64,000 bases of DNA from Kineosporia babensis. GTDB lineage: Bacteria > Actinomycetota > Actinomycetes > Actinomycetales > Kineosporiaceae. This document shows positions 25,821-63,131 of this stretch, piece after piece. The stretch spans positions 62,001-126,000 of the forward strand of contig NZ_JAJOMB010000024.1 of the NCBI RefSeq assembly GCF_021129305.1, read 5' to 3'. Position numbers and translations under genes: made by a program. The stretch's first letter is position 1; each line of letters opens with the position of its first letter. The notes below the pieces were generated by a model that worked only from the letters and a program-made list of their open reading frames with translations, made no database searches and was not told where the DNA came from.

Positions 25821-26512
25821 CCAGAGGACGGGTCCACGTCGCCTCCGGGGGCGGCGTGGACCAATCCCGTTCGATAGGCGATCACCACCAACTGCGCCCG
25901 ATCCCGGGCACCCAGCTTCGTCATCGCCCGTTGCACGTGGGCCCGCACGGTGAAAGGGCTGAGGAACAACCGTTCGGCAATCTCGGTGTTGGACAGCCCG
26001 GTAGCAACCTGGGCGAGCATTTCCCGCTCACGGGCGGTCAGCGTCCTCAGTTCTTTCAGAGCCTTTTCGGACGGGCCTTCCGGAGTTGCCAGAAAACGCT
26101 CAACCAGAGAACGGGTCGCGTGAGGAGACAACAAAGTCTCCCCTGCCGCGACGGTGCGCACCGCGTCCATCAGTTCTTCCGCCCCTATGCCTTTGCCGAT
26201 AAAGCCCGCGGCCCCCGCCCGGAGTGCCTGGGCCACGTGGGCGTCGGTCTCATAGGTCGTCAGAATCAGCACACGCGTGGCCTGCAGATCAGGATCCGCG
26301 CAGATCTGCTCAGTGGCGGCAAGACCGTCCACCTCCGGCATCCGAATATCCATGACCACCACGTCCGGACGCAGTTCCCGGACAAGCCTGACCGCTTCCC
26401 GGCCGTCGCCGGCCTCACCCACCACAACGAGATCGTCGGCGGAATCCAGAAGAACGCGAAAAGCATCTCGCAGCAATGCCTGATCGTCGGCCAGCAACAC
26501 CCTCAGCATCAC
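25817..26512 (-). CDS. NarL/LuxR-type response regulator
   Basis: The 231-residue protein has a receiver domain (VLLADDQALLRDAFRVLL with the acidic pair, phospho-Asp in DVVVMDIRMPEVDGLAA, Lys in AGFIGKGIG) and a C-terminal LuxR HTH (LTAREREMLAQVATGLSNTEIAERLFLSPFTVRAHV). Its start overlaps the histidine kinase stop by 4 bases, so they form a two-component pair. The target is unknown; no obvious adjacent output gene is present apart from the convergent oxygenase. Confidence 0.92.
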   Translation of the reverse strand: MMLRVLLADDQALLRDAFRVLLDSADDLVVVGEAGDGREAVRLVRELRPDVVVMDIRMPEVDGLAATEQICADPDLQATRVLILTTYETDAHVAQALRAGAAGFIGKGIGAEELMDAVRTVAAGETLLSPHATRSLVERFLATPEGPSEKALKELRTLTAREREMLAQVATGLSNTEIAERLFLSPFTVRAHVQRAMTKLGARDRAQLVVIAYRTGLVHAAPGGDVDPSSG

Positions 26513-27657
26513 CGCAGCTCCCGCTTCGCCGGAATCGGAAGGCAGGCCCAGACCCGGAACCCACCCTGGGGATCCGGGCCGGCCGAAAGTTCCCCGCCTG
26601 CCGCAGCGGCTCTCTCGCGCATCCCGATCAGCCCGTAACCAGAGGACCTTTCGGAAATGAAGGACGCCAGCGGCCGGCTTGAGGCACCCGGCTGGTTCTC
26701 GCTGTTGCTCACGGTCAGGATCAGATGCCCGGACGACCAGGCCAGCATCACCTGGGCGCGGGCCGTGGCGGCGTGTTTGGTCACGTTGGTCAGAGCCTCC
26801 TGGACGATGCGATAGGCGTTGAGATCGATCCCGGGCGGGAGCGCTCGCGGTGAACCTTCCTCGGCAAGTTCGACTTCCAGGCCTGCGCGACGAAATGAGT
26901 TCAGCAGGAGGGGAAGCTGGGCCAGGCCGGGCGCCGGTTCGGCCGGCGTCGCCGAGTCGCCGCTCTGGCGCAGCAGGCCCACGGTGCTCCGCAGTTCGTC
27001 GAGGGCCTGTCGGGTGGTCTCGACCAGCTCGGTCAGGCTCTGACGGCTCTGCTCCGGTCGAGCGTCGAACAGGTGAGCCGCGACTGTGGCCTGTGCGTTG
27101 GCCAGGGTGATCTGATGGGCCACGAGGTCGTGCAGCTCACGGGCGATACGCAGTCTCTCTTCCCCCACCCGGCGCCGCGCCTCGTGCTCACGCTCCTGCT
27201 CAGCCCGCACAGCCCGCTCCTGCACGGCCGCCAGATAGGCCTGACGGTGCCTGGTCGAACGTCCGAGAATCCCGGCCACCAGTGGGAACGTCGCCGTTGC
27301 ACCCAGTCTGCTGGCGTCCTGCCAGGAAAGCTCGCCCGACCACGGAATCGCACCGATCAGCAGCACCAGCGAGCTGAGCGTTACCCCTGCGGTGGCTTGG
27401 CGTTCGGTCCTGGCGGCTGCGGCGAAGCTGTAGGCGGCGAAGAGCGCCGGAACCACGACGACCGGGCTCGGCACCAGCTCCAGCGGCTGCACCAGCAAGC
27501 AACCCGCGGTGGTGACGGCCAGGACGACCGAGGGTGCGCGGTGCCGCCAAGGCAACGCCGCGCACGACAGCAGGGCGAACAGGACGGGGCTTACCGGCCC
27601 GGGCGACTGCCCGTCGCCGACCCGAATCAGCCCTCCGGCCAGACAGAACAAGAACAC
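26509..27657 (-). CDS. NarL-family sensor histidine kinase
   Basis: The roughly 382-residue kinase has several N-terminal membrane helices (about residues 1-140), a coiled segment, the HisKA_3 phosphoacceptor motif ERLRIARELHDLVAHQITL and an HATPase with NAYRIVQEALTNVTKHA and SGYGLIGMRERAAAAGG. No extracytoplasmic sensor domain is visible, so it probably senses in or at the membrane. The GTG at 27657 is the first usable start; coding-like sequence (LSRTWRREAAITAVV) upstream has no ATG/GTG start, so the real start may be a rarer codon slightly upstream. Coupled to the response regulator. Confidence 0.88.
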   Translation of the reverse strand: MFLFCLAGGLIRVGDGQSPGPVSPVLFALLSCAALPWRHRAPSVVLAVTTAGCLLVQPLELVPSPVVVVPALFAAYSFAAAARTERQATAGVTLSSLVLLIGAIPWSGELSWQDASRLGATATFPLVAGILGRSTRHRQAYLAAVQERAVRAEQEREHEARRRVGEERLRIARELHDLVAHQITLANAQATVAAHLFDARPEQSRQSLTELVETTRQALDELRSTVGLLRQSGDSATPAEPAPGLAQLPLLLNSFRRAGLEVELAEEGSPRALPPGIDLNAYRIVQEALTNVTKHAATARAQVMLAWSSGHLILTVSNSENQPGASSRPLASFISERSSGYGLIGMRERAAAAGGELSAGPDPQGGFRVWACLPIPAKRELR

Positions 27658-27796
27658 GACCGCGGTGATCGCAGCCTCGCGCCTCCAGGTCCGGCTCAGC
27701 CCTGTCCCCCTTAGCCCTTTTCGTCAGGATATCGACACTTCGGGCCTGGCCACCAGCAGAAGGTGGCCGAGCGGGATGCGCAAATAGCCGCTACCT

Positions 27797-28672
27797 TCAC
27801 CCGAGCAGGCACTCCAGGAACTCGGTCACGGCCGGCGATCGGTCGGCGGCCCGGTGTCCGACCCAGAGCTTCGACGGCGAGACCCCTTTCACCTCACGGG
27901 AAATCAGACCCGGAAGCGCGGTGCCAGGAGGGGCCGTCGACCACGGGTAGAAGGCGATGGCCTGCTCCAGGCGCACGGCGGCGAGCACCTCCCCCGGTGT
28001 GGTCACCGTCGGACCTGAGCGCCATTCGCGACCGTTCTCGTCGGCGGCGGCCCAGTGTGCCGCCTCGGCCACCGACATCCGGGCCCACGTGGTGATCGGC
28101 TCGTCCAGCAGTTCGTCGAGTTCGATGCACTCCCGGTCGGCCAGGGCGTGGCGCGCAGGCAGAATGACAGTGCGCGGTTCGGTCAGCAGCAGGTGCTGGG
28201 TGACGCCGGGCTCGTCGAACTGGTCGCGCAACAGGGCGACCTGGTGCCGGCCCGAGCGCAGATGGTCGGCCTGCTCGCGGGTGTCGTCACTGCTGAAATC
28301 GATCTCCGGCTCGAAGGCGCAGAGTTCGGCGGCCAGGGACACGTCGCAGATGTGAACGCTGACCTTCAGCCGGGGCCGCTCGGCCTCCCGCGCGTTCTGC
28401 AACGCAGCGCTCATCCGGGCATCGAGGTCGCGAGCGGACTCCAGCAGGCTCTGCCCGGCCGCGGTCAGTTCCAGGCCGCGGGGTCGGCGGATCAGCAGAT
28501 CCACGCCGACCGCCCGTTCGAGCGACTGGATGGCCCGTGAGAGGGCGGGCTGGGTGATCAGGAGCCGTTCCGCTGCCCGGGTGAGGTTGCGTTCCTCGGC
28601 CACCGCGACGAAGTAGCGCAGGAGACGCAGATCGGGGTCAGCCACGGGCATGCCCAGGGTGCATGGAGCCAT
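27797..28672 (-). CDS. LysR-family transcriptional regulator
   Basis: The 291-residue protein has the LysR HTH (LRYFVAVAEERNLTRAAERLLITQPALSRAIQSLE, with the wing LEL TAAGQ) and a periplasmic-binding-like effector domain. It is divergent from the SDR gene at 28754, with about 80 bases between starts, the usual arrangement for LysR control of the neighbouring gene. An in-frame ATG at 28651 (seven residues shorter) may be the true start. Confidence 0.9.
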   Translation of the reverse strand: MAPCTLGMPVADPDLRLLRYFVAVAEERNLTRAAERLLITQPALSRAIQSLERAVGVDLLIRRPRGLELTAAGQSLLESARDLDARMSAALQNAREAERPRLKVSVHICDVSLAAELCAFEPEIDFSSDDTREQADHLRSGRHQVALLRDQFDEPGVTQHLLLTEPRTVILPARHALADRECIELDELLDEPITTWARMSVAEAAHWAAADENGREWRSGPTVTTPGEVLAAVRLEQAIAFYPWSTAPPGTALPGLISREVKGVSPSKLWVGHRAADRSPAVTEFLECLLG

Positions 28673-28753
28673 GACCGATCGGCCTTGGACGGCTGCGCGA
28701 AACGTCGAACATGCTGGTCATTCAATCGCAACTCAGGCACCAGGAGCATTCGC

Positions 28754-29578
28754 ATGGCCCCCACCGTCCTCGTCACGGGTAGTTCGTCCGGCTTTGGCCG
28801 CTCCGTAGCGGCCAAATTCCTTGAGGTCGGCTGGAACGTCGTCGCCACTCTTCGCGATCCGGGTCGGTGGACCGGCGAGACCTCCGAGCGTCTGCTCGTC
28901 CACCCACTCGACGTGCGTGACGAAGAAGCCGTTCAGGCCGCGGTCGCCCGGGCGGCAGAGCATTTCGGACGTTTGGACGTCGTGGTCAACAACGCGGGCA
29001 TCGGCTTGTTTGCGCCTTTCGAGACCACACCCGTCCCGATGGTCCAGGAAGTCTTCGACACCAACGTCTTCGGGCCCATGCACGTCGTCCGCGCCGCCCT
29101 GCCGGTGTTCCGCGCCCAGGGCAGCGGGCGCATCGTCAACCTCTCGTCCGGGAACGCCACCGTGCCGATGCCGCTGCAGTCGGTGTACAGCGCGGCCAAG
29201 GGCGCCGTGTACAACTGGTCCGAGTCGCTCGCGGACGAACTGACCGGGCAGAACATCCAGGTCAAGGTGGTCGAGCCCGGGTTCGTCCCGGACACCAACT
29301 TCTTCGCCGCGACCTACGCGAGGTTCACCGGGATTCCCGCGTCCGACGTCTACAGTTCGATGATCAAGGCGACGCTGGACGGCTTCCAGGTCGAGCCCCC
29401 GCCGGGGTACCTGGCCACCTCCCAAAGCGTGGCCGACACCATCTTCGCGGCCGCCACCGATGAAACCGGCCGTCTGCGGTACCGGATCGGCAGCGACTCG
29501 GAGGAACTCGGACGAGCTCGCCAGCAGCCGCAGGCCGAGTACGAGGCCTGGCGTCGGCGCTTCTTCTACGCGGGCTGA
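28754..29578 (+). CDS. Short-chain dehydrogenase/reductase
   Basis: The 274-residue SDR has VLVTGSSSGFGRSVAAKFL, DVVVNNAGIG, IVNLSSGNATVPMPLQSVYSAAKGAV (Ser/Tyr/Lys catalytic) and VVEPGFVPDTNFF. GGAG lies upstream of the ATG. It is divergent from the LysR gene, which probably regulates it. The substrate is unknown. Confidence 0.9.
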   Translation: MAPTVLVTGSSSGFGRSVAAKFLEVGWNVVATLRDPGRWTGETSERLLVHPLDVRDEEAVQAAVARAAEHFGRLDVVVNNAGIGLFAPFETTPVPMVQEVFDTNVFGPMHVVRAALPVFRAQGSGRIVNLSSGNATVPMPLQSVYSAAKGAVYNWSESLADELTGQNIQVKVVEPGFVPDTNFFAATYARFTGIPASDVYSSMIKATLDGFQVEPPPGYLATSQSVADTIFAAATDETGRLRYRIGSDSEELGRARQQPQAEYEAWRRRFFYAG

Positions 29579-29772
29579 GCGAGGTTCTCCCTGCGGTCGG
29601 ACCCCGGCCGCAGGGCGCCTTCAGGTCTTGTCACCGCCGGCCCTGACAGGATCTTCGCATTCGCCTTCCGGACGAAGCAGTCCTTCGCTGCGCTTGTCCA
29701 TGCGTAGGCTGTGTATGAGTTCGTCTGGGAAGCAATGCCTGGAGGCGTCAACTCTGGACATCGAGGTGGATC

Positions 29773-30498
29773 ATGCGGCAACGCCCCGAGCCTGGTGCCC
29801 CGGCCTGGCCACCGAACCTGCGTGACGTAGCCACCGCTGCGCCCGGCCTGAGCCCAGGATTCCTGCTGCGCAGCGACGCACCTCGCCCCGGCGACACGAC
29901 CCCTCCGAGAGTGCCCTGGCCCCCGGCCACGGTGATCGATCTGCGTGAGCCGACCCGACCCGTCTCGGAGCACCCTCTGGCCCATTGCTCCACCGTGCTC
30001 AGCGCGCCCGTCCTGGGCGAACTCAACCGCGACCCGGCCTCGGCGCTCACCTCGCTCGAAGCTCTCTACCTGCTGTTCGCCCACGGAGCGGCCGCCGCCC
30101 GCCTGGCCCAGGCAGTCACCCTGATCGCGGCGGCCCCGGCGCCAGTACTCGTGCACTGCACGGCCGGTAAAGACCGTACAGGTCTCACCGTAGCCGTGGC
30201 CCTGCTGCTGGCCGGGGTGAGCCAGGCCGCCATCGTCGCCGACTATCAGCTCACCGAGTCAGCCCTGCCCGCCGTGCACGATCGGATCATGGCTGCCCTC
30301 AGCCCCGACGCACCCCCGCTGCCCACCGGTGTGGCCGCAGCCCTACACGGCGTGGAACCTCAGGCGCTGCTGGCCTTCCTGACCGCAGTGAACGCCTTCC
30401 CTGGTGGTGCCAACGCCTGGTTCTTTCACCACGGCGGTAGCGCCGAGAGCGTCCATCGGTTGCAGCAGCGCCTGATCAGCGGGACAGAGCCACGCTGA
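29773..30498 (+). CDS. Tyrosine-protein phosphatase (Y_phosphatase3 type)
   Basis: The 241-residue protein shows LRDVATAAPGLSPGFLLRSDAP and TVIDLREPTRP at the N-terminus. The active-site P-loop VLVHCTAGKDRTGL follows (Cys nucleophile and Arg), and DYQLTESALP lies downstream. This is the pattern of bacterial LipA/MptpB-type dual-specificity phosphatases that act on phosphotyrosine, phosphoserine or phosphoinositides. It stands alone; the preceding 190 bases hold no gene. The usual family length is 240-270. Confidence 0.88.
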   Translation: MRQRPEPGAPAWPPNLRDVATAAPGLSPGFLLRSDAPRPGDTTPPRVPWPPATVIDLREPTRPVSEHPLAHCSTVLSAPVLGELNRDPASALTSLEALYLLFAHGAAAARLAQAVTLIAAAPAPVLVHCTAGKDRTGLTVAVALLLAGVSQAAIVADYQLTESALPAVHDRIMAALSPDAPPLPTGVAAALHGVEPQALLAFLTAVNAFPGGANAWFFHHGGSAESVHRLQQRLISGTEPR

Positions 30499-30556
30499 GG
30501 TGACGTCCGGTTTCCGGCCCAGGGTCGGCCGCAACGTCCTCAGGTCGTTCGGGGAC

Positions 30557-31627
30557 TCAGACCTTCTGCCGGGCTCCGGTCCGTCCGGCCCGGGCCACCG
30601 CGGCAACCACAGCAGCACTGCGCTCAGCCAGCGCAAAGCCCGGGGATGTCCGCGTACCCGACCTGAGATCGTCAACAATCCGCGCGTACACCTCGGCCAC
30701 GTTCAGCGCCGGACCGCTGCCCGGTAGAACTGCAGCATCGGGCTTCTCGAAGTCGACGCTCGCGGTGAGCGTCAGGTCACCGCCCTGAACGCCGTAGAGC
30801 GTGCCGCCCCGCAGACGCAACCAGCCCAGTGTCCCCCGGACCATGAAATCGAACTCCGCCTCGTCCGGTGCCACGCCCCCGACGATCGAGGTGTTGAACA
30901 CGACACCAGCACCGACCAGGCCGAGAACATCGGCATGATCGGGAGTTTCCCGCAGGACCGAGCTCCGGGTGTCGATCACCTGAACCGTCGGGAACAAGGT
31001 CGGAGTCCGGGCCTCGACCTCGGAGATCCTCTCCCCCAGCACGAACTCCATCAGGTCCAGGGTGTGCCCGGCCGTGATGGTGAGGATGTTGGCTCCCGAG
31101 GCGGGGTCCTCGTAGTGCAGGTACGGCGAAACCGTCGAGGCTCCGGCAGCACTGGTGGTCGAGACGATTCGAGCAGTCAGAGGACGCCCGATGGCGCCTT
31201 CGGCGATCATCCGCGCCGCCCGGCGCGCAGCCGGGTTGAGACGGCCCTGCAGCCCCACCGCGGTCAGCGCCTCGGCCCCGGCCGCCCGGAGCAACTGCGT
31301 CTCGGTCATGTCGATACCGAGCGGCGCCTCACAGTAGACCGCTTTTCCCGCCTTCAGCGCGGCCTCGACCAGCGTGCGGTGGGCCGCCACCCGAACGGCC
31401 ACCGTGACGATGTCGACGCGCTCGTCCGCGATCAGGGCCAACGGGTCCGTGTACCAGCGCTCGGCCCCGAACGCCGCGGCAGCCGCCTTGGCGCTTTCCT
31501 CACGGCGGGTGGCCACCGCCGCCAGCTCGAGATCGGCCGACCCCTTGATCGCGGGGACGTGAGACAGCTGAGCCCAGCTGGCGTTGGTGTCGGCTCCGAT
31601 GATCCCGACCCGAAATGCCCGGTGCAT
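30557..31627 (-). CDS. Gfo/Idh/MocA-family oxidoreductase
   Basis: The 356-residue protein begins FRVGIIGADTNASWAQLSHVPA, then LELAAVATRREESAKAAAAAFGA and VDIVTVAVRVAAHRTLVEAALKAGKAVYCEAPLG. The usual EKP motif is EAP here, so the lysine that contacts the cofactor and substrate is replaced. It is most like galactose dehydrogenase-type or GFO-like regulators (Gal80-like) in length. It is divergent from the XRE regulator at 31756, which may control it. Confidence 0.85.
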   Translation of the reverse strand: MHRAFRVGIIGADTNASWAQLSHVPAIKGSADLELAAVATRREESAKAAAAAFGAERWYTDPLALIADERVDIVTVAVRVAAHRTLVEAALKAGKAVYCEAPLGIDMTETQLLRAAGAEALTAVGLQGRLNPAARRAARMIAEGAIGRPLTARIVSTTSAAGASTVSPYLHYEDPASGANILTITAGHTLDLMEFVLGERISEVEARTPTLFPTVQVIDTRSSVLRETPDHADVLGLVGAGVVFNTSIVGGVAPDEAEFDFMVRGTLGWLRLRGGTLYGVQGGDLTLTASVDFEKPDAAVLPGSGPALNVAEVYARIVDDLRSGTRTSPGFALAERSAAVVAAVARAGRTGARQKV

Positions 31628-31755
31628 GTTTCCTCCTGAGGTGTCTGCGCTCGCCCTCCAACCAACCCGCCCGCTGCCCCCACCGGCCAGGCCCGATCGA
31701 ACCTGGGCATGCTCTGACCAGGTTCGTTCCTGGGCCGCGCCGTATCGTGAAGCGC

Positions 31756-32616
31756 ATGAGCAGACCGGCCCCCGACACCATGGGCCTCGGCGCCTTCCTG
31801 CGCTCGCGCCGTGACCGGCTCACCCCCTCGCAGGCCGGCATCACCCCCTTCCCCGGAGCCCGACGCGTCCCCGGGCTGCGCAAGGAGGAGGTCGCGTTCC
31901 TGGCCGGGCTGAGCGCCGACTACTACAGCCGGATCGAACAGGGCCGCCAGCCCACGCTCAGCGACGACATCTGCGCAGCCCTGGCCCGCGCGCTGCGGCT
32001 GGACGAGACCGAGCAGACCCACCTGCGCCAGCTGGCCGGACCGGGACGCCGGGGACCACGCCACTCAGCCCCGCAGTCGCCCGATCCAGGACTGCTGCGG
32101 GTGATGGCCGCCCTCGAGCACATTCCCACGCTCCTGCTCGACCGGTTCTCGCGAGTCCTGGCCTGGGGCGGCCCGCTCGAGGCGGTGCTCGGCGTCCATC
32201 TGGAACCCGGCTTCTCGTTCTGCCGCTGGCTTCTGCTCGACTCCGCCGCCCAGACCCGGATCGACAACTGGGAGGACTTCGCCCGGGCAGCCGTCGGTAC
32301 CTTGCGTCACCAGATGAGCCGGCACGCCCCGGATCAGCAACTGCTCGCCCTGATCGAGGACCTGCGCACTGCCCCTGACTCCCGTCTGGGGCAGTGGTGG
32401 GACGAACTGACCGTGGCGGATCAGACCTCTTTGCGTAAGCGGATCGCGCATCCCCGGGCCGGGCTGCTCACCTTCGGCATCGAGACCGTCTCGCCTCCGA
32501 ACCAGCATGACCAGCGTCTGGTGATCTACACGGTTGAGCCCGATTCCCGCACCGCGCAGGTGCTGCCGATGCTGCAGGCCTGGGGCCGCGACGAGATCGC
32601 CGCAAGCCCACCGTGA
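31756..32616 (+). CDS. XRE-family regulator with MmyB-like ligand-binding domain
   Basis: The 286-residue protein has LGAFLRSRRDRLTPSQAGI, the HTH VPGLRKEEVAFLAGLSADYYSRIEQGRQPTLSDDICAALARALRL and a C-terminal MmyB domain ending in YTVEPDSRTAQVLPML. Family members commonly regulate a divergent oxidoreductase, here the Gfo/Idh gene with about 130 bases between the starts. It is the second such regulator in the window (first at 15891). Confidence 0.88.
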   Translation: MSRPAPDTMGLGAFLRSRRDRLTPSQAGITPFPGARRVPGLRKEEVAFLAGLSADYYSRIEQGRQPTLSDDICAALARALRLDETEQTHLRQLAGPGRRGPRHSAPQSPDPGLLRVMAALEHIPTLLLDRFSRVLAWGGPLEAVLGVHLEPGFSFCRWLLLDSAAQTRIDNWEDFARAAVGTLRHQMSRHAPDQQLLALIEDLRTAPDSRLGQWWDELTVADQTSLRKRIAHPRAGLLTFGIETVSPPNQHDQRLVIYTVEPDSRTAQVLPMLQAWGRDEIAASPP

Positions 32617-34057: not shown

Positions 34058-36856
34058 TCACCCCAAAGGGCGCCAGGTCGCCAACTGGGCCAAGGTGTCT
34101 TGCGTCTCGGACGAGATGGAGATTGCTCCGGGAGCAGGAACCGGATCGCCTTTCGATGCCCTGCTTCGCAGCGTGGTCATGTCCACCACCGTACCGCTGT
34201 GTGAGCGCTCGAAGGGTACGAAGCTGATAGCTCGGGTCCCCTCTGGGGAAATCTGTAGCTCTCCCCGGGCATCGGGAACCACTTGACGAAGTTCGAGATT
34301 GCGCCCGGAAAGGGCGACCGCGCCCAGTTCCGCTTGGACCATCACGTCACCGGTCAGGCGGTTGCATTGCAGCGACTGTGGTTGCGCAGAGACTTCTTTG
34401 ATGGCCTCCTGTTCCAGGCTGCTGGAGAAGAGGCGGACCGAACCATCGCTTCCAACGACAACGACCCTGTGTTGCGGAGTCACGCAGACACTGGTGGCTA
34501 CACCCTCGATGCTCCGCAGTAGCCGACCATCGGTGGCGGCCGCGTGGATCACTGTCCCCCGATCCGTGATCCCGTAGAAGTGGTCGCCGTCCATCGCTAC
34601 GCTCGTCAGCACATCGCCCGCAGGTGTGTCGGGGCTGGACAGGGAAGTCTGGTGGCCGTCGGCCAGATCAATGACTTTCAGACTCCTATCAGCAAGAGTA
34701 GCGACCACACGATCTCCCTCAGCAGTCGAGGTGATGCCTTTGACAGCACCTCCCTGGGGCCAGGTTCGGATGATGCCCTTTGGTCCCAACTGGTGGACGG
34801 CGTTGCCGGCGAACCCGATCGCCCCTCTGCTTGTTGCAACAACGAGTGGTGACAGCGGATCGGCGAGGTGCCCGACAGCGGTTGCGGGGACACGGCTGTC
34901 GAGAGAGACCGCGAAGAGGTCACCGTTCAGCATTTGGAGGAGAACCTGATCGCCGGGCAGAACTGCTGCGCTCATCGCTCCCCCGACAGAGCGAGAGAGC
35001 GGTGCGCCCTGCGCGAGGATCTCGATGCGTCCGCTGCTGTAGGCGATGGCTACCGGAGAACCCCCGTCGCGCGTGGCGACTGTCGAGAAGGCGTTCGAAT
35101 CCGATGGCCTACTGACACCCACAGGAACCCAACCAGAGCTCGGGAGAGACGTAACCGCACGATTCATGATACCGATGCCGAAAGCATTCCCGGTGGGCAG
35201 ACAAGCAGCGCCCCACATGGAACTTCCGCTCGAGAACGGTGATGTGGGACGGCCCTGAGCATCAAGTTCGACGTGCACCGTCTGCCAAAGGCTCTGGCGA
35301 CGACTGAGCATGACCTGGGTCCGGTCGCCGCATGGCAACAGCATCGGTGCTCTGAGGGAGTTGCGAACGCTCTCGATTTGCCCGAGATTTCGCACTGTAC
35401 GCCACATCTCTGGGCTGTCCGGGCTCTCGGTTCTTGCCGGTGGGGTGCGGATCGTGGCTAGATCCGTCTCCCATGTGAGGGTCAACTGTTCCCCCTGGAC
35501 GCTGAAGCGGCGGACCACATCGTCGTCGGTCAGCAGGGTCAGGAGCTCTGGCCCAGGTTCGAGAGCCAGGACCGTGCCCTGATCACCCAGAACCGGGACT
35601 TCCTCGCCTGAGCTGTCGACAAAGCCCACGGTCCCCTCCTCGTCAGCCCACCAGATTCGCCCCTCGGAACCTTGGGCGAAGGCGGTGACCTCTCGATCGG
35701 AGAGCTGGGTGACTGCCTCGGTCCCGAGATCGATCGACACGAGGCGCCCGGAATCACGGAGGACGGCCAGAACCTGGGTGGGACTCACGAACGTCACCTG
35801 CTGGGAACCGATCGGACTGCTCAGGGGCAGATCACCGAGCAGCGTACCCGATGCGTCCAGGACAACCAGTCCCCGGCCATAGTTGAAGACCAGTCGGGAA
35901 CCGTCCGCTGACACCGCTCCCGAACTGTAGTTTCGAATGGGGATTGGCCGAAGCACAGAGATTTCCCGCCTGGACAACACCCTCTGCAACGTTTCTCGCG
36001 TTGTGACCTTGTTGTCGAGCGACAAGGCATGCCGTGCTGCGGTGAGAGCCGCCTCGGTATCCGATCCGAGGAGGTCGGTGGCTTGCCTGGCGAATCTCAG
36101 CGACGATGCCCGGGCCTGATCGCTCCGGGCTTCGTCCTGGTGGCGTCCCTCAGCCCGAAGGAAGAACAAGGTGCCGACCACAGCCGCCAGAATTAGTCCA
36201 ACAGCTGCAATCCCCAGACGCCGACGGTCCTGGATCCGGGACCGTTCATGATCGACGACCCGGAGCGCGTGGCCCCTCTGGGCATCGCTGATCCTCGGTG
36301 CGTTCAAGGCGACCTCGGCGGCAAGCAGCATCTTGGCATCTGCCAAGCGGTGCCGGGCCGCCGGTGACAGCACCCGCCTGACCCGGGAGGTCTGCTCCGC
36401 ACTCCCCCGATCCATCTCTGCGCTCAGACGAAGATGGGCGAGTGCCAGATCGAGGCGCTCATCAAGAAGATCGGTAAGCGCCTGAAGTGCTTCCCGATCA
36501 GCCCGCATCACCCACGACCAGTCCCAATGATCGTCCGGCAGGAGCGGATCAGTGATGACGGCGACACGGATTCCCAGTCGGCGGGCATACTCGAATTCGC
36601 TGGTGCAGTAGGACGAGTTGCGGAGTGGAAGGCTGTCGTGCACGAGAAACGCGGCACTCTCGGCGATCGCCTCGAAGATGACCTTTTGATGCTGGAGACC
36701 AGGAGGCAGTCCGAGCGCCTCGATGGAGGTTTCTCTATCCGACAGAGAACTGGGTTTGTCCATCCAGACGCTCTGCCCGAGCTGCACGAGGTCTTGCCGC
36801 AACTGCCGAGCCTCGACGAGTCGTAAGTTGGCGTAGCAGAGAAAGATGTTATGCAT
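34058..36856 (-). CDS. TIR domain - transmembrane - beta-propeller protein
   Basis: The 932-residue protein starts with a TIR domain (residues ~1-130): IFLCYANLRLVEARQLRQDL, WMDKPS, and SSYCTSEFEYARRLGI, which fits the S-[WY]-C-x-x-E catalytic region with E87 as the candidate NADase glutamate. A charged helical linker follows, then RRR and one transmembrane helix at about 213-234 (GIAAVGLILAAVVGTLFF). A helical hairpin region (ATDLLGSDTEAALTAARHALSL) leads to about 650 residues of WD40/YVTN-like propeller blades. The positive charges before the helix predict the TIR in the cytoplasm and the propeller outside. Its ATG overlaps the partner's stop by one base (TGATG). TIR enzymes consume NAD+ or make signalling nucleotides in phage defence; this gene's role is inferred. 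Confidence 0.78.
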   Translation of the reverse strand: MHNIFLCYANLRLVEARQLRQDLVQLGQSVWMDKPSSLSDRETSIEALGLPPGLQHQKVIFEAIAESAAFLVHDSLPLRNSSYCTSEFEYARRLGIRVAVITDPLLPDDHWDWSWVMRADREALQALTDLLDERLDLALAHLRLSAEMDRGSAEQTSRVRRVLSPAARHRLADAKMLLAAEVALNAPRISDAQRGHALRVVDHERSRIQDRRRLGIAAVGLILAAVVGTLFFLRAEGRHQDEARSDQARASSLRFARQATDLLGSDTEAALTAARHALSLDNKVTTRETLQRVLSRREISVLRPIPIRNYSSGAVSADGSRLVFNYGRGLVVLDASGTLLGDLPLSSPIGSQQVTFVSPTQVLAVLRDSGRLVSIDLGTEAVTQLSDREVTAFAQGSEGRIWWADEEGTVGFVDSSGEEVPVLGDQGTVLALEPGPELLTLLTDDDVVRRFSVQGEQLTLTWETDLATIRTPPARTESPDSPEMWRTVRNLGQIESVRNSLRAPMLLPCGDRTQVMLSRRQSLWQTVHVELDAQGRPTSPFSSGSSMWGAACLPTGNAFGIGIMNRAVTSLPSSGWVPVGVSRPSDSNAFSTVATRDGGSPVAIAYSSGRIEILAQGAPLSRSVGGAMSAAVLPGDQVLLQMLNGDLFAVSLDSRVPATAVGHLADPLSPLVVATSRGAIGFAGNAVHQLGPKGIIRTWPQGGAVKGITSTAEGDRVVATLADRSLKVIDLADGHQTSLSSPDTPAGDVLTSVAMDGDHFYGITDRGTVIHAAATDGRLLRSIEGVATSVCVTPQHRVVVVGSDGSVRLFSSSLEQEAIKEVSAQPQSLQCNRLTGDVMVQAELGAVALSGRNLELRQVVPDARGELQISPEGTRAISFVPFERSHSGTVVDMTTLRSRASKGDPVPAPGAISISSETQDTLAQLATWRPLG

Positions 36857-39525
36857 CAGGGCAATCCGGCGACCGGGACGTCCAGAGCAGTGATCTCCGC
36901 AGCGGTGAGTTCGCGAGGTATCTGAGCATGAAAGCGCCTTCGGAATGCTTCGTCCGACTCCAACTGACGCTCGATCAGGCCTCCGGCCCGTTCCAGCAGC
37001 AGGACCTTGTCATTTCCGAGGAACCCCACGTCCTGAACCGTGTTGGAAGTCGAGGAGCCGTGTGCCTGCAACAAGACCTCACCAGTGGCAGTGCTGAGCA
37101 CCCGAGCCTGCCTGTCGCCGAAGACGGCCACCAGGCTCGCGTCGGCGGAGACCTTCAGAGCGTAGGCGGAGAGCTCGGTGGGAATCTCTGCAACCGTGAC
37201 CTCGGAATCGCCGTTTTCGACGATGAGCTGTCCGGAACTGGCCAGGTAGACGGTAGTACCGTCCGCCGCACGCGCGGCGGCCAGATTCGCACCGCCGGGG
37301 GCCGGTTTCGCACGTCCATCCTCGTCCACCACCGATCCGTTGCTGGTCACCACCGACACGCCGTTGTCTGCGTCGATGAGGATCGAGGTTGGTGGCGATC
37401 CGTCGGTCTTCAGGACCGCGCTACCTCCGTCAGCCCGCCATATCTGGGCGAAGGAATCGCCGGCAGCGACCGCCGTTGTCCCGTCATCGCTCAGGGCCAA
37501 GAGGACTCCTTGACCGACTACTGGGTCAGCCCGACCCTGGACGTCCGTGGTGGACCATTCACGGTCGCCTGACGGCATCCCGTACACACTAAGCTGGCCC
37601 GACCACAACTGGGCGACGTGATCTCCGCGTACGGAGACGGTGACCTGATTGAAGTCCGGCAGCTTCATGAATCCCCGGGAAACCAACCGGAGGGGTGAGA
37701 GAGTCACTCCGGCCAATTCACCAGCGGTCTGCCCGTAGAAGGTCGCTGTTCCCGCCGTTGGATCGACCCCCAGGCGAGATCGGGTGGCCGAACGCCGGGA
37801 TGCTGCAGGCACGAAGGCGTCTATGCCCTTCGAGGCCTCCACATCGGGATAAGCCGGAGAGCTGATCTTGCTCCAGATCCTGAGGTAGGAATCAGTTCCA
37901 GCGGTCACCATATGGGACTCCCCCACCACAGCCACCAGAGGCGCGCCGCCCTGAGAAAGGCGAAGACACGGCGAAAGTTCCTGCGCTGGCGGCGCGAAGA
38001 AGCAAATGCCACCGATAGCCAACGCCAGGAGCGAACTATCGGGTCCAGGAGCAAACGTGGCCCGGCCCGGTGCATAGTCGATGGATGGCTTGCTGTCTTT
38101 CAGCAAGACGACGGTGAAGCTGTCTTCACCAGAGTCCGATTGGACGAACAGTCGCTGACCGTCTGGGGTAAATGTCACCCCGGCCACCTCCGGCTGTCGG
38201 CTGGAGTAGAGGCGGCGGCCACTGCCGAGCTCCCCTATCCAGACCCCTGTGGAGCCGCCGATGGCGACCCGGTTGCCGTCTGGGCTGATGTCGATGTCAG
38301 CCGCTGCACCGACAACCGGAGGTGGGGTTCCCCATCCGGGCGGCCTACTCAGACGCCCGTCCTCCCAGATACCCGAACGGCCTGGAGCGCTCAGAACCAG
38401 ATCGTCTCCGGCCCAGATCGGCACAGCGCCTTGGAGAGAGGTCGGGAGATCTGCCGAGGTCAGAGCATCGTCGTGCCAGACCCGTAGTCGAGTGCCGACC
38501 AGCGCCACCCGGTGACCGTCGTCAGAAACCGCTGGCCGAACAGGCCGGTTCCCGGGCTCAGCAGGCAGGTTCCGCATCATGCTCCCAGCCGAGTTGTAGA
38601 GGGCGGCTGTTCCGTCCTCATACGCCACCGCTATGACGTTCCCGGAGCGAGAAGCTGCGAGCGCCTGCGCGGTCCCCGGCAACTTCGTAGAAGTGTGGGG
38701 AGGGCTGGCTGCCAGGATCTCGCGGGCCAGAGAGGTCGTGCCCGGGCTGGGGTCGAGTTGGAGGGCTGCGTCGGCCAGGAGACTCGGAATATCCGGTTCA
38801 CCCTGCTCTAGAGCCTCTTTGGCCTTTCGAGCGAGCTGGGCGCCGCCGGACACGGCGGCTTCTCGCTGAGCCCGCGCAGCGGACGTCTCGGCGCGAGAGC
38901 GCTCGATCAGGAGAACAGCGCTAGTCACCATGAGTACCAGCACCACGCCGAGGACGAGCAAGTAGTTTCGCCGGCGATGCCGACGGTGCACGCTGCTGCT
39001 TTCCGACACGTAACGCCTGATCAGGGGGTGCCGATCCGGAATCGCTGCCAGAGCCAGGTCAGGTAGGTCCTCGGCGATGGCAAGGGGCCTGCCGCGCAGG
39101 AGGTCAGCCGACCTCCTGCCGTTCTCCTCCCAGCGCTGGGCCTGCCTCAGGACACGGTTGAGGTCCTCGACCCGGGCCACCCCCGCCCGGGCAAGCATCG
39201 CAACCTTGGCCGCGGCAGCCTCGTATCCGTTCTCGGGAATTCTCAGTTCCGACATCGACCCCTTCGGATTCTTCTCATCATCCGCGAAGACCACCGGAAC
39301 GAAAACTTGATCAGGCGCGACAATGTCATCGGGGACGAGGGAATCGTCGGCGACGATCAGCAGTGTCAGCTCCACGGCGGGACCTGACTCGGTCACGTCG
39401 TGGATGGCAAGGCCCTGTTGCCGAAGGTGCTGCCTGAATCGCTCGGCCGGCCGGTCTGCCGCACCATTCGTCAGATCGATGATCCGGACGCTAGCCGGTA
39501 GTGACGGCTCTCTCTCGGTCGACAT
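36856..39525 (-). CDS. TIR-like (non-catalytic) - transmembrane - beta-propeller partner protein
   Basis: The 889-residue protein has the same plan as its downstream neighbour. An N-terminal alpha/beta domain (VRIIDLTN, FRQHLRQQGLAIHDV, ELTLLIVADDSLVPDDIV, VFVPVVFADD) resembles a TIR fold but lacks the S-x-C-x-x-E motif. A helical linker ends in HRRHRRRNY, followed by one transmembrane helix at ~187-207 (LLVLGVVLVLMVTSAVLLI) and a helical region. About 620 residues of propeller repeats then include DISPDGNRVAIGGSTGVWIGEL and LALSDDGTTAVAAGDSFAQIW. GGGGGAA lies before the ATG. It is the first gene of the pair and is translationally coupled to the second. A receptor or regulatory pseudo-TIR is a likely but untested role. 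Confidence 0.72.
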   Translation of the reverse strand: MSTEREPSLPASVRIIDLTNGAADRPAERFRQHLRQQGLAIHDVTESGPAVELTLLIVADDSLVPDDIVAPDQVFVPVVFADDEKNPKGSMSELRIPENGYEAAAAKVAMLARAGVARVEDLNRVLRQAQRWEENGRRSADLLRGRPLAIAEDLPDLALAAIPDRHPLIRRYVSESSSVHRRHRRRNYLLVLGVVLVLMVTSAVLLIERSRAETSAARAQREAAVSGGAQLARKAKEALEQGEPDIPSLLADAALQLDPSPGTTSLAREILAASPPHTSTKLPGTAQALAASRSGNVIAVAYEDGTAALYNSAGSMMRNLPAEPGNRPVRPAVSDDGHRVALVGTRLRVWHDDALTSADLPTSLQGAVPIWAGDDLVLSAPGRSGIWEDGRLSRPPGWGTPPPVVGAAADIDISPDGNRVAIGGSTGVWIGELGSGRRLYSSRQPEVAGVTFTPDGQRLFVQSDSGEDSFTVVLLKDSKPSIDYAPGRATFAPGPDSSLLALAIGGICFFAPPAQELSPCLRLSQGGAPLVAVVGESHMVTAGTDSYLRIWSKISSPAYPDVEASKGIDAFVPAASRRSATRSRLGVDPTAGTATFYGQTAGELAGVTLSPLRLVSRGFMKLPDFNQVTVSVRGDHVAQLWSGQLSVYGMPSGDREWSTTDVQGRADPVVGQGVLLALSDDGTTAVAAGDSFAQIWRADGGSAVLKTDGSPPTSILIDADNGVSVVTSNGSVVDEDGRAKPAPGGANLAAARAADGTTVYLASSGQLIVENGDSEVTVAEIPTELSAYALKVSADASLVAVFGDRQARVLSTATGEVLLQAHGSSTSNTVQDVGFLGNDKVLLLERAGGLIERQLESDEAFRRRFHAQIPRELTAAEITALDVPVAGLP

Positions 39526-46871: not shown

Positions 46872-47846
46872 CTAAAGGGCACGACCATAGAACGAATGCA
46901 TGTGCGGCGTGCGCCCATTGGGATGGTAGTGCCACATGTGGCCAGACCCGGCGCCGCCGTGAACCTCTTCGCGCACCGGGTTCAACCCGCCCTTGACGCC
47001 CTTGGCGATGGATTTGGCCCGAGCTTTTGTCGTGGACCACACGTCCTGGCTCTTCTTACCCCGCGCCACGGCCGCCGACGCGGTGAGTCCACGTCCGCTG
47101 ATGTATACCTTGTTGTTCTGGACCTTGGCCGGGTAGTGGTAGCGCTTCTTGTCCTGTGAACGCTTCTTGTTCTCGTCGATGATCCGGCCGACCGCCCGAC
47201 CCGCCTCGAGGGCTGCAATACCGCCGATCACGATCGCAGCACCAATGGCCATGTAGTAGAGCATGGTCGCCGCCGAGATTCCGACGAAAGCAATGGGGAT
47301 CGCGAAAGCCGGTCCTGGGATGGACTCCTGGGCCGTGGCCGAGTCGTAGTCGTAGGTCCGTCCCGTGTCCGTGTCAGCCAGGGTGAAGACCGTACGCTCA
47401 GGAGTCGACGTCTCAACGTCGATGTCGTAGGTGGAGGTCACCGTTCGCCCACTAACGGCGTCGGTGACCGTGACGGTCCCATGCGCAGTCTCGGGGTCCA
47501 GTCGCAGATCGATCGCATACGGGTCATTAGCGGCCTGTGCCTCAGCTTCGACCTGGATCTCGTCCAGACCGATTTCGACCGACCCAGCCTCAAGCCCTTC
47601 CTGCTCCAGGCCTTCGGCGACGATCTCCTCACCGGTCATACCCTCGGTGTCAAACCCCAAGTCTTCAAGCGGCTTGGTGGCACTTAGGGCAGCGACCCCG
47701 GCGCTGTTCTGCGTGAACGCGTGGTCGGACGCCGATGCCGACGTGCCCCCCAGAGCGGTCAGTACCAGAGCAGCGGTGACCGGCACCGCTACAGTGCGCA
47801 GACCTGCGGTCAGGCGGGTGATGTGTTCCGGATGACTCGATTTCAC
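46872..47846 (-). CDS. Secreted toxin-like protein resembling the SAR2788 family
   Basis: The roughly 324-residue protein starts at a GTG (47846) with a signal-peptide-like segment (TVAVPVTAALVLTALGG then SASAS). A region with beta-rich Thr/Val sequence follows, then a hydrophobic stretch (AFAIPIAFVGISAATMLYYM, AIGAAIVIGGIAAL). The C-terminus is basic, with KVYISGRGLTASAAVARGKK, SQDVWSTTKARAKSIAKGV and finally GSGHMWHYHPNGRTPHMHSFYG. The His-rich tail ending in SFYG and the DVWST segment recall 'SAR2788 family putative toxin' proteins of Firmicutes. A longer start at 47912 would add a non-signal leader. It heads a three-gene operon. Confidence 0.65.
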   Translation of the reverse strand: MKSSHPEHITRLTAGLRTVAVPVTAALVLTALGGTSASASDHAFTQNSAGVAALSATKPLEDLGFDTEGMTGEEIVAEGLEQEGLEAGSVEIGLDEIQVEAEAQAANDPYAIDLRLDPETAHGTVTVTDAVSGRTVTSTYDIDVETSTPERTVFTLADTDTGRTYDYDSATAQESIPGPAFAIPIAFVGISAATMLYYMAIGAAIVIGGIAALEAGRAVGRIIDENKKRSQDKKRYHYPAKVQNNKVYISGRGLTASAAVARGKKSQDVWSTTKARAKSIAKGVKGGLNPVREEVHGGAGSGHMWHYHPNGRTPHMHSFYGRAL

Positions 47847-48443
47847 GGGATCATGATCACAGATTTCCCATATGAAACGAATACTTTCTAAGGCGTTGAA
47901 AGCGTGACGCACGTATCATTGCACTCACAGCTAGTCGTCATCTAAGCAAGGATCCATTCCGAGTAACGGGTGGCGACTCGGAGCAGTTTGATCGCGCTGA
48001 ACGGCGAGCTCGCAGTGATCTTCGGCGAGGTGCGGCGTGGCTGCCCGATTCAGGCCGCGGAACCTCGATAGGATGGAACCTCTCACGGTGTCTGTCACAG
48101 AGATCCCGCGCGTAGATGAGCGTCTTATGTGAAGGGGTTTCTCGAGGTATCCGAGGGCCTTGTCAGGCGTCGCTGAGGAAGCCGACCAACGAGGGGTTTC
48201 CGTCATCGAAGATGCCGACTGCCGAACCCCTTGATCGGCACCGCCACCGTGCCGACAGACACGACCACGACCTGATGCCCACTCGATCCACCGCCGAGGC
48301 TGTCGGCGCCCTGCCGGTCTCGGTCCGGACCGACCCGAGGGCCCGAAATGACCTTGGCCCGTCGGCGATCAACACGAGATGACCCCTGCCCGTGCCGGCC
48401 TCTGGTAGGCAAGGGTGGTCAACCGTGACAGGAGCCCGACCCG
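47847..48443. other. Intergenic, no supported gene
   Basis: About 600 bases upstream of both the toxin-like operon (leftward) and the DUF6431 gene (rightward). It holds their promoters but I see no clear boxes. The 48170-48400 part has short GC-rich inverted segments and may be the end of an old mobile element. Confidence 0.4.
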
Positions 48444-49254: not shown

Positions 49255-49947
49255 TGATCGGTGTGGCACACGTTCGGGCGCAAGGGCTTTAACTCCCTAC
49301 TGGCAAGCGGTTCTGGTGTTGCGGTGGCTCATCGACGACACCCGGATGATCGTGTTAGCCAGAGACAACAAGATCTCTGTCTCGACGGCCTACAGCTACC
49401 AGAGCGAGGGCATCACGGTGCTGGCCGCGCGCCAGCCCGGGCCGCCGGTCACACGCACGTGATCCTGGACGGGACCCTGATCGAGACCGACCGTATCCAC
49501 ACCCGCGGGCCCACACCCGGGGTGGATCTGTGGTGGTCGGGCAAGCACGCCCGTCACGGCGGGAACATTCAGGCCGTCTCCGCGCCAGAGGGCTGGCCGT
49601 TGTGGACCTCGAACGTACGCCCAGGCAACAAACACGACACCACCGCGGCCCGCTCCGATGCGCACCTGCTCGACACCGAGCACAAGGCGCTGGCGGACCG
49701 GCTACGAAGGCGAAAAGGACGTGCTACTTGTTCCCGTTCAAGACACCCGCGAGCGGCAGCCTGGCCATGAGCCAGAAGGCCCACAACAGCCTCCGCAGTG
49801 CCGTACGGGCCCTGGGTGACCCGTCAACCCGGTCCTGAAAACAACGTTCAAGGCCTTACGCCGCTGGCACGGGTGCCCCTGGCGCGTCGGCGGCATCGTC
49901 GCCGCAGCCCTCGTTCTTCTCCACCACGAAGGTGGCCGCACGACATG
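49255..49947 (+). pseudogene. IS5-type (DDE_Tnp_4) transposase, multiple frameshifts
   Basis: Transposase segments lie in three frames: RALTPYWQAVLVLRWLIDD, then ISVSTAYSYQSEGITVLA; next THVILDGTLIETDRI and VDLWWSGKHARHGGNIQ, and WPLWTSNVRPGNKHDTTAARS; last ALRRWHGCPWRIGGIVAAAL. Deletions and frameshifts separate them, so the gene is dead. No terminal repeats were found. Confidence 0.8.
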
Positions 49948-50753: not shown

Positions 50754-50883
50754 CTGAGCACCCTAGCCTTGATCCTGCAGGAAGCCCGACGGGGTGGTGC
50801 TCGCAGAATGGTGAGAGTGCCCGTCCGACAGTGAGATTCTCATCTTGTCTAAGAAGTCAGAAGCATGTCCGGGGAGCACTCTC

Positions 50884-52355: not shown

Positions 52356-52814
52356 CTATCCGCAGCACCACGCACCGATCCGCGAGCATGCGAATAGCCT
52401 GCAGAAATCCCACCAAACCAGCCCCAGAAACCTCAGCCCTGCGCCGAGCAAATCATCACAGCCGAAGAAGTCTCGAATCAGATTCGATTTTCGATCGATC
52501 AGAGTCGCACCCTTGCTGCAAGGCCAGGGCTAGAGGCGAGAGCCAGTACCGCCGGCGGCTGATCGAGGGGTTTCGACCTTGGTTACCATCCATCACCTCG
52601 CCTCTACGCCAGCAGCCGAGCATCAGTCAGGAACATCTGGACCGACTGATCCACCGGGTTCCAACTTAGAATGGCACGGATGCCGGACCACGGAACGTGA
52701 TCGGAGCGAGAAGGCGAACGGCGCCCGCGCTGGCTCTCGACGAGAGCTAGATCGCAGCGTTTGGCGCCAATTTGGCGCCGCGAGCCCCGCTGGGAGCCCT
52801 TCAGGTCAAAGCAG
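52356..52814. other. Chromosomal flank left of the attachment site, no gene
   Basis: About 460 bases between the transposase remnant and the tRNA terminator. The stretch 52765-52790 contains a TTTGGCGCC direct repeat (two copies separated by AA). No gene seen. Confidence 0.4.
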
Positions 52815-52836: not shown

Positions 52837-52853
52837 TACCTGCTTCTTTCTCG

Positions 52854-63130: not shown

Positions 63131-63131
63131 G

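What the first reader, a model, noticed from the sequence alone, without database searches (positions are those of the whole stretch)
34058..39525. Coupled pair of TIR-transmembrane-beta-propeller proteins, one catalytic and one non-catalytic TIR
Two adjacent genes overlapping by one base encode proteins of 932 and 889 residues with the same order of parts: TIR or TIR-like domain, helical linker, one membrane helix preceded by a basic patch, helical region, large beta-propeller. The first-listed protein keeps the S-Y-C-x-x-E signature (E87). The partner lacks it, which suggests an active enzyme and a regulatory pseudo-enzyme. The positive-inside rule puts the TIR in the cytoplasm and the propeller outside, the reverse of a soluble STAND sensor and reminiscent of a Toll-like receptor layout. 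TIR domains and WD40/propeller proteins are known in bacterial immunity and signalling. The coupled membrane pair with split catalytic competence is, to my knowledge, not a named system. The neighbourhood holds a NACHT-type remnant.
Basis: partly seen in the sequence, partly recalled or inferred. Interest (0 to 1): 0.85.

Follow-up and report, generated by a model that had tools for sequence, protein, structure and literature searches.

The report
Two-gene membrane TIR receptor pair
Two overlapping bacterial genes encode matching membrane proteins, one with a probably active immune-type (TIR) enzyme domain and one with what looks like a worn-out copy of it, and the same ordered pair turns up in three other bacteria, which suggests a two-part surface alarm not named in the literature searched.

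Summary
Gene A (889 aa, 36856-39525, transcribed first) and gene B (932 aa, 34058-36856) overlap by one base on the minus strand. Each has an N-terminal domain, a linker, one predicted membrane helix and a propeller-like region. In 4 of 4 pairs B keeps the S-x-x-C-x-x-E motif of TIR enzymes; in 4 of 4 A lacks it. B's TIR assignment is firm for the family. A's N-domain as a degenerate TIR is probable only: a four-member profile beats 200 of 200 shuffles, but single sequences do not, and structure prediction failed. Topology is predicted. A is absent from 12 of 12 other genomes of its family; GC3 is low; an integrase lies 13 kb away and a Wadjet type II set 15 kb away. SLATT, SLOG, DUF4062 or RyR-domain genes lie near the relatives, and RyR-domain genes lie near TIR genes in 11 of 14 class loci opened. 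Best reading: a membrane TIR receptor of one enzyme and one pseudo-enzyme, signalling by NAD+ cleavage. New variant of a known kind; untested.

The parts
36856..39525 (-). Gene A, 889 aa, first gene of the pair: probable degenerate TIR N-domain, linker, one TM helix, propeller-like region
   Evidence: ORF; counterparts L057:6273-9008 (22% over 882 aa, E 3e-13), L062:7222-10008 (25% over 956 aa, E 4.6e-26), L085:3667-5952 (no BLAST match; profile match 93%)
39181..39525 (-). A residues 1-115, probable TIR-like domain without the S-x-x-C-x-x-E motif
   Evidence: Four-member profile vs TIR profile score 30.3 over 101 columns; best of 200 column shuffles 17.0, reversed 10.4; A889 alone 15.1. No cysteine in this part in 4 of 4 A proteins
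38905..38961 (-). A predicted membrane helix, residues 189-207, after HRRHRRRNY
   Evidence: Kyte-Doolittle 3.06, only segment above 1.5
36859..38703 (-). A propeller-like region, about residues 275-889 (limits by eye)
   Evidence: Weak Pfam matches below their cut-offs: Beta-prop_EML_2 5.2e-6, WD40 1.4e-5
34058..36856 (-). Gene B, 932 aa, second gene: TIR, linker, one TM helix, propeller-like region
   Evidence: ORF; counterparts L057:9001-11631 (27% over 430 aa, E 5e-20), L062:10001-12559 (25% over 414 aa, E 3e-14), L085:5949-8099 (profile match 97%)
36557..36856 (-). B residues 1-100, TIR domain
   Evidence: TIR_2 E 7e-4 here, below cut-off; 4e-12 in the Nocardia orthologue and 5.5e-15 in G599, both above it; B-family profile vs TIR profile 98.4%
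36596..36598 (-). Codon of E87, presumed catalytic Glu in S81-x-x-C84-x-x-E87
   Evidence: S81, C84 and E87 invariant in 4 of 4 B proteins; lines up with WCWDE of Cat1 (PDB 9mud, weak match E 0.009). That this Glu is catalytic is recalled knowledge of the TIR family
36158..36214 (-). B predicted membrane helix, residues 215-233, after RSRIQDRRRL
   Evidence: Kyte-Doolittle 2.51
34061..35959 (-). B propeller-like region, about residues 300-932 (limits by eye)
   Evidence: Weak Pfam PQQ_2 3e-4, WD40 0.009, below cut-offs; WD40 5.4e-6, 27.2 bits against 27, in the G599 orthologue
36856..36856 (-). One-base stop/start overlap TGATG between A and B
   Evidence: Sequence; overlaps of 8, 8 and 4 bases in L057, L062 and L085

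Best explanation
The two genes encode a paired membrane receptor of the TIR-based conflict (probably anti-phage) type. B is the enzyme: its cytoplasmic TIR domain cleaves NAD+ when activated. A is its ancient paralogue whose TIR has lost the catalytic motif and now serves as a scaffold or brake. Each chain crosses the membrane once and exposes a large propeller outside the cell. A and B, made from overlapping genes, assemble through linkers, membrane helices and propellers. An outside event (phage binding or envelope damage) shifts the propellers, the change passes through the helices, and the TIR of B assembles into its active form. The outcome is NAD+ loss or an ADP-ribose-type messenger that opens a membrane effector (RyR-domain channel, SLATT or similar) where one is present. 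Shown: the genes, the pair and its order in four genomes, the motif split, one main hydrophobic segment per chain, TIR/SLATT/SLOG/RyR/DUF4062 genes near the relatives. Inferred: NADase activity, A-B binding, topology, ligand, defence role, effector.
For: Pair in four genomes with fixed A-then-B order and overlapping genes. B keeps S-x-x-C-x-x-E in 4 of 4, A lacks it in 4 of 4. B-family TIR firm. A and B are paralogues in register from the linker through TM into the propeller (hhalign 95.5%, E 1.6e-8). The four-member A N-domain profile resembles TIR above 200 of 200 shuffles and above three other alpha/beta templates. More Lys+Arg before than after the segment in 8 of 8 chains, and an even number of propeller cysteines in 8 of 8 (2,2,0,6,4,2,2,4; zero counted as even). 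Defence context: integrase and Wadjet JetA2-D2; SLATT_3+SLATT_1, a single-chain TIR-TM-WD40 and a TIR-WD40 protein near the Nocardia pair; a SLOG gene, an overlapping TIR-TM-WD40 gene and three more TIR genes near the G599 pair; a DUF4062 gene and a RyR-domain membrane protein near the Rhodococcus pair.
Against: A alone is not recognised as TIR by Pfam, by solved-structure sequences or by the TIR profile (15.1, within the shuffle range); its profile scores only 9.7% against the B-family TIR itself; both structure predictions were unusable. The window's own B scores below the Pfam TIR_2 cut-off. No RyR match in the window's genome at E 0.01 and no SLATT or other known effector among the 32 window ORFs scanned, so a messenger-driven effector is not shown here. 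No PADLOC model matches A or B. The pair is rare, so co-localisation rests on three relatives. No experiment exists.
Confidence: 0.5

Rival explanations
1. The pair is a membrane sensor of the same anatomy but not a defence system: it monitors the cell's own envelope or development and uses NAD+ cleavage or TIR scaffolding for ordinary signalling.
For: No phage or defence assay exists; no recognisable effector was seen among the window ORFs scanned; PADLOC does not match the window pair.
Against: Patchy distribution (A in 0 of 12 other family genomes), lower GC3 than five genes to its left, a plasmid copy and TIR/SLATT/SLOG/Wadjet neighbours fit mobile conflict systems.
Confidence: 0.22
2. A is not a pseudo-TIR: its N-domain is an unrelated small alpha/beta domain (binding or adaptor), and the 'split enzyme' idea is an over-reading.
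For: A alone scores 15.1 against the TIR profile, within the shuffle range, and the score without the G599 protein drops to 20.6; untrimmed, the four-member profile gives 37.8% against TIR, 9.7% against the B TIR and 3.7% (score 19.6) against an unrelated RyR profile; AlphaFold mean pLDDT 46.8 and 44.0; best solved-structure matches are short stretches of designed proteins at E 0.058 or worse.
Against: Trimmed four-member profile scores 30.3 over 101 columns against at most 17.0 in 200 shuffles; A is a paralogue of B in the rest of the chain, so its N-domain occupies the TIR position.
Confidence: 0.25
3. The hydrophobic segment does not export the propellers: both halves lie in the cytoplasm with the helix as an anchor or hairpin, so the propellers sense an internal target like those of soluble STAND proteins.
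For: The flanks of A carry positive charge on both sides (5 against 4); the G599 A segment is weak (1.76); the Rhodococcus B has a second, weaker segment at 335 (1.88); WD40 domains of STAND sensors are generally cytoplasmic (recalled).
Against: N-side charge excess in 8 of 8 and even cysteine counts in 8 of 8 propellers; TIR needs cytoplasmic NAD+, so a single-pass chain must put the propeller outside (inference).
Confidence: 0.12

Closest known systems
Single-chain TIR-TM-WD40 proteins (L062:1738-4704 of Nocardia; L084; third gene of the G599 locus; related TIR-TM proteins such as WP_263235417.1 of Streptomyces cynarae)
   Same: TIR at or near the N-terminus, linker, one hydrophobic segment at about 200-280, WD40-type C-terminus (WD40 part of the plasmid proteins not tested)
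   Different: One chain; different TIR subtype (FRDxTxL by eye); no pseudo-TIR partner seen. In Nocardia and G599 such a gene lies near the pair. Among 40 class TIR loci opened, only 1 (L052) had an N-terminal TIR with a segment near residue 214, so the layout is not common there.
Methylorubrum extorquens CM4 tandem TIR-TM proteins (WP_041929394.1, WP_012606285.1)
   Same: Two adjacent same-strand genes for TIR proteins of 982 and 973 aa, each with one hydrophobic segment
   Different: By eye both retain a W..E-type TIR motif, so not an enzyme/pseudo-enzyme split; homology to A or B not tested.
Multi-domain proteins with linker-TM-WD40 (STAND, kinase or protease type, named by eye)
   Same: A's linker-TM-WD40 part matches these best in the class: 7 of 393 other genomes, 4 of those 7 loci also by BLAST at E 1e-3
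   Different: Other domains stand where A has its N-domain; one of them (L011) itself begins with a TIR_2 match.
Thoeris (ThsB TIR + ThsA), including type III ThcB4 (NF058526)
   Same: TIR enzyme making cADPR-type signals in known systems; the TIR part of G599 B hits ThcB4 at 40 bits and PADLOC ThsB1 at 29.6 bits
   Different: No ThsA-type partner among the window ORFs scanned; ThcB4 cut-off of 220 not reached; Thoeris TIR proteins are soluble (recalled).
Animal Toll/Toll-like receptors
   Same: Single-span receptor with outside sensor and cytoplasmic TIR (as described in PMC7075850, passages seen)
   Different: LRR not propeller, opposite chain order, no sequence evidence of common descent as receptors.

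Membership tests
TIR domain NADases | TIR fold in B | tested here: met
   TIR_2 47.1 and 56.4 bits in two orthologues, cut-off 28; 27.3 in the Rhodococcus one and 20.5 in window B, both below; family profile 98.4%
TIR domain NADases | Catalytic glutamate in helix C | tested here: met
   E87 invariant in 4 of 4 B proteins; lines up with the Cat1 motif in a weak match
TIR domain NADases | NAD+ hydrolysis or cyclisation | not testable with these tools
   Needs an enzyme assay
TIR domain NADases | TIR fold in A | tested here: inconclusive
   Trimmed four-member profile above 200 of 200 shuffles, but single sequences are not, no Pfam match, 9.7% against the B TIR, low-confidence models
Thoeris | ThsA-type effector (SIR2-SLOG, TM-macro or other) encoded beside the TIR gene | tested here: inconclusive
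   None seen among 32 of 121 window ORFs scanned with Pfam; the other 89 were not scanned
Thoeris | Match to curated Thoeris models | tested here: not met
   No PADLOC match for A or B; no ThcB4 match for A or B and below cut-off in two orthologues
Single-chain TIR-TM-WD40 proteins | TIR, one TM, WD40 in one chain | tested here: met
   B fits the layout, with weak WD40 evidence; TIR subtype differs
Single-chain TIR-TM-WD40 proteins | Encoded as a lone gene without an A-type partner | tested here: not met
   B lies directly after A in 4 of 4 genomes where an orthologue was seen
Toll-like receptor | Outside sensor, inside TIR, single pass | tested here: inconclusive
   Hydropathy, charge and cysteine pattern agree; no topology experiment
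MoxR-vWA beta-propeller systems (PMC7159879, passages) | MoxR ATPase and vWA genes in the cassette | tested here: inconclusive
   Neither seen among the 32 window ORFs scanned; a VWA gene lies near the Rhodococcus pair

The most novel reading that the evidence does not exclude
A bacterial cell-surface immune receptor made of two chains, an enzyme TIR and a pseudo-TIR, that senses a phage or envelope event outside the cell and signals inside through a cADPR-type messenger to a RyR-domain ion channel (or SLATT pore), i.e. a prokaryotic counterpart of surface TIR receptor signalling joined to cADPR-to-RyR channel gating.
Probability: 0.15. Interest if true: 0.92.

Novelty: new variant of a known kind. 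Interest (0 to 1): 0.7.

Why it matters
Most bacterial TIR defences that I know of (recalled) sense inside the cell. A conserved pair that puts one active and one dead TIR behind two outside-facing propellers would be a surface alarm, and would show a dedicated pseudo-TIR partner. The side finding that RyR-domain genes lie near TIR genes in the loci opened makes an old question (does a cADPR-type signal act directly on RyR domains?) testable in simple cells; a 2026 preprint (PMC13232231, passages seen) already shows phage RyR-domain proteins degrading or sequestering 2'- and 3'-cADPR.

Tried and rejected
Structure: A N-terminal 220 residues alone (mean pLDDT 46.8) and Nocardia plus window A N-domain (mean pLDDT 44.0). 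Both too poor for a fold search, so none was run.

Searches that led nowhere: plasmids with A, viral contigs with B, genome contigs with A alone (124 pattern matches, none confirmed), phages with the Rhodococcus B, plasmids with the G599 proteins, plasmids with a linker consensus, 58 other genomes of G599's genus with its B (none). B matched in 0 of 393 other class genomes. The class scan with profile A1 gave four weak partial matches outside the own genome, not followed. Of the 12 loci only L062 is a pair; in the BLAST the other 11 matched only the B proteins, in their TIR part. In one search, 10 of 301 genomes matched; I opened two (G599, a pair; G406, a single-chain TIR-TM-WD40) and left eight, whose matches lie in the linker or propeller. 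Of 40 TIR loci opened (chosen from the strong matches, mostly by frame length), 9 had any segment above 2.0 and 1 (L052) had it near residue 214 behind an N-terminal TIR.

Considered and set aside: A as a plain STAND-WD40 protein (no NTPase found in it); Thoeris membership; NACHT remnant (not found); a claim that the window's own effector is a RyR channel (no RyR match in the genome; one search had no positive control, rang in 41 other genomes). The RyR-like C-terminus of the G599 membrane protein is weak (3.5 bits) and is not counted as RyR.

Limits: class and large family scans scored only two or three candidates per genome, so absence there is soft; one search scored all candidates but searched A only. 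The TrkA control ended with one sequence (my pattern missed the others), and the Gfo/Idh and SLOG controls had one each. Percent identities by global alignment (25-36% within A or B) say little, because A889 against B932 gives 24.9% by the same measure. The RyR/TIR count uses profiles that I built: two of the 14 loci (L091, L092) contributed to the TIR profile and all 14 to the RyR profile; these two were also picked after I saw that their TIR and RyR coordinates were close. Two of the 16 RyR genomes outside family f26 (G150, G131) and all 25 of f26 were not opened.
Full report
WHAT IS THERE. The window (G000, contig C17, 62001-126000; 9.4 Mb assembly) holds two long minus-strand ORFs, A (36856-39525, 889 aa) and B (34058-36856, 932 aa). 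A is transcribed first; its stop codon shares one base with the start of B. B begins with a TIR domain: Pfam TIR_2 at E 7e-4, 20.5 bits against a cut-off of 28. Both proteins have one hydrophobic segment and weak WD40/propeller matches behind it. PADLOC matches neither; it does match the TIR part of the G599 B (SAVED_TIR, 44.8 bits).

IT IS A CONSERVED PAIR. Neither protein has another match in its own genome, and A has none in 12 of 12 other genomes of the family (B was not searched there). tblastn of B against 72,556 plasmids gave one hit, a Rhodococcus qingshengii plasmid, where the TIR gene (876 aa) follows directly on a 911-aa gene annotated as WD40 protein, overlapping by 8 bases. They match B and A respectively (27% over 430 aa, E 5e-20; 22% over 882 aa, E 3e-13). 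A pattern scan with joined N-terminal parts over a collection of 84,980 species gave 12 loci, one of them a pair: Nocardia takedensis, a 928-aa gene and then an 852-aa TIR gene overlapping by 8 bases. Profile comparison assigns the G599 genes cleanly: A-profile to first gene 93%, B-profile to second 97%, cross pairs 11% and 23%. BLAST does not link the G599 first gene to A, so that assignment rests on profiles, position and layout. The proteins are very diverged: global identities of 25-36% within A or B are hardly above the 24.9% between A and B.

THE CATALYTIC SPLIT. In 4 of 4 B proteins S81, C84 and E87 of the S-x-x-C-x-x-E motif are invariant. In 4 of 4 A proteins the N-domain has no cysteine and no such motif. 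The B-family TIR is firm: TIR_2 47.1 bits (Nocardia) and 56.4 bits (G599), and 98.4% against a TIR profile made from 36 class TIR segments. The A-family N-domain, trimmed to 115-125 residues, scores 30.3 (61.8%, E 7.6e-5) over 101 columns against that profile; 200 column shuffles reach at most 17.0 and the reversed alignment 10.4; three other alpha/beta templates, each a single sequence, give 8-12. Against this: untrimmed it gives 37.8% (score 28.1), against the B-family TIR itself only 9.7% (23.9), and against an unrelated RyR profile 3.7% (19.6); A889 alone scores 15.1 and the three closer A proteins together 20.6, so the G599 protein (26.6 alone) carries much of the signal; the PDB sequence search gave nothing relevant and AlphaFold failed. 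A and B are paralogues from the linker through the membrane helix into the propeller (95.5%, E 1.6e-8). I therefore call A a probable pseudo-TIR.

TOPOLOGY. In 8 of 8 A and B proteins the 15 residues before the main hydrophobic segment carry more Lys+Arg than the 15 after it (5v4, 8v3, 5v3, 6v2, 5v3, 4v2, 5v2, 8v0), and all 8 propeller regions have an even number of cysteines (2,2,0,6,4,2,2,4). Both fit an N-in, C-out single-pass protein with an oxidised outer domain. The G599 A segment is weak (1.76) and the Rhodococcus B has a second, weaker one (1.88). This is prediction; the cysteine argument is my inference.

CONTEXT. GC3 of A and B is 0.72 and 0.70; that of five Pfam-assigned genes at 26509-32616 is 0.79-0.85, while the Wadjet genes (0.63-0.67) and a subtilase gene (0.69) to the right are also low, as expected for acquired DNA. 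At 52579-54519 lies a phage integrase, at 54941-63130 JetA2, JetB2 and JetC2, and JetD2 begins at about 63132 and runs past the window end (L105:132-1292). Transposase matches lie at 49261-49770 and 50845-51459. Near the Nocardia pair are a SLATT_3+SLATT_1 protein, a single-chain TIR-TM-WD40 and a 1261-aa WD40 protein that begins with a TIR. Near the G599 pair are a third gene for a TIR-TM-WD40 protein overlapping B by one base, two more TIR genes, a SLOG gene and, 14 kb on, another TIR gene. Upstream of the Rhodococcus pair come a membrane protein with a RyR domain and then a gene annotated DUF4062; DUF4062 was reported in 2026 as a TIR-like NADase acting against phages (PMC13174449, start of abstract and passages seen).

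RYR-DOMAIN GENES AND TIR GENES. The Rhodococcus neighbour (816 aa) has four hydrophobic segments, a RyR domain (PF02026 17.5 bits, below the cut-off of 27.4, E 0.005; E 9e-12 with a profile built here) and a weak PGDYG match; a TrkA-type stretch is seen by eye only. His-x-x-Trp and a His 25 residues later match the spacing of H75, W78 and H100 named for the phage protein RyDEP (PMC13232231, passages); its D117 has no counterpart at the same spacing. This is a reading by eye. In G599 a genome-wide search with this protein found one place, 14.5 kb from the pair: a PGDYG membrane protein with only a trace of RyR. In 296 class genomes 41 had a RyR match, 37 over the cut-off. I opened 14 loci (of 16 outside family f26): 11 of 14 have a TIR gene on the fetched 8-15 kb, and in 7 of 14 the two ORFs abut or overlap, 4 of these 7 on the same strand, although only 41 of 118 class genomes have any TIR_2 match at E 1e-5. 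Two of the 14 were chosen after noticing the closeness; without them it is 9 of 12 and 5 of 12. In those two (G078, G094) the genome's only TIR_2 match lies beside its only RyR match. Eight of the 14 RyR ORFs are long (624-831 aa) with one to four hydrophobic segments; six are short. TrkA_N was over its cut-off in one (L099) of four RyR proteins scanned. This supports RyR-domain proteins as partners of TIR enzymes in general. For the window it is only suggestive: its genome has no RyR match.

HOW IT PROBABLY WORKS. See Best explanation. Precedents used: in the short Argonaute TIR-APAZ complex active and inactive TIR units coexist in one assembly (PMC10474274, passages); SLATT proteins are predicted nucleotide- or ADPR-signal-regulated membrane effectors tied to TIR genes (PMC9503650 and PMC7159879, passages); phage RyR domains bind cADPR isomers (PMC13232231, passages).

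KNOWN OR NEW. Eight literature searches (listings) and passages of eight papers show no description of this pair or of a TIR/RyR-channel gene association; most subscription papers are not in that library, so this is weak evidence of novelty. The TIR-TM layout in one chain occurs in several genera: 20 plasmid records match L062:1738-4704, six of them over the TIR part, the rest over the propeller; I opened three, with four TIR proteins, each with one hydrophobic segment. A tandem of two TIR-TM proteins exists in Methylorubrum, both apparently with motif. What I found nowhere else is the conserved enzyme/pseudo-enzyme pair. Verdict: new variant of a known kind, interest 0.7.

Noticed in passing
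window 52579-64000 and L105:132-1292: Phage integrase followed by a Wadjet type II set (JetA2, JetB2, JetC2, and JetD2, which runs past the window end)
   Followed up: yes
L091-L099, L101, L102: RyR-domain genes lie near TIR genes in the genomes of this class: 11 of 14 loci opened, 7 of 14 abutting; 8 of the 14 RyR proteins are long with hydrophobic segments
   Followed up: partly
L085:3314-3667: 117-aa gene without Pfam match, overlapping or abutting the start of the G599 pair
   Followed up: no
L107:4991-5686: 2TM protein with CyanoTRADDas_TM domain before a Streptomyces TIR-TM gene
   Followed up: no
L108:2887-8853: Tandem TIR-TM proteins of about 980 aa on a Methylorubrum plasmid typed as conjugative, both with a W..E-type motif by eye
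   Followed up: partly
window 46872-47912 (-): 346-aa protein that by eye looks exported, with a hydrophobic middle and a basic C-terminal part; no Pfam match over the cut-off and no PADLOC match
   Followed up: no
G029, G050, G068, G084, G100, G112, G123 (family f26): These seven genomes of one family carry 11 to 33 TIR_2 matches each, at most 4 in the other genomes listed outside the family and own genome (5)
   Followed up: no
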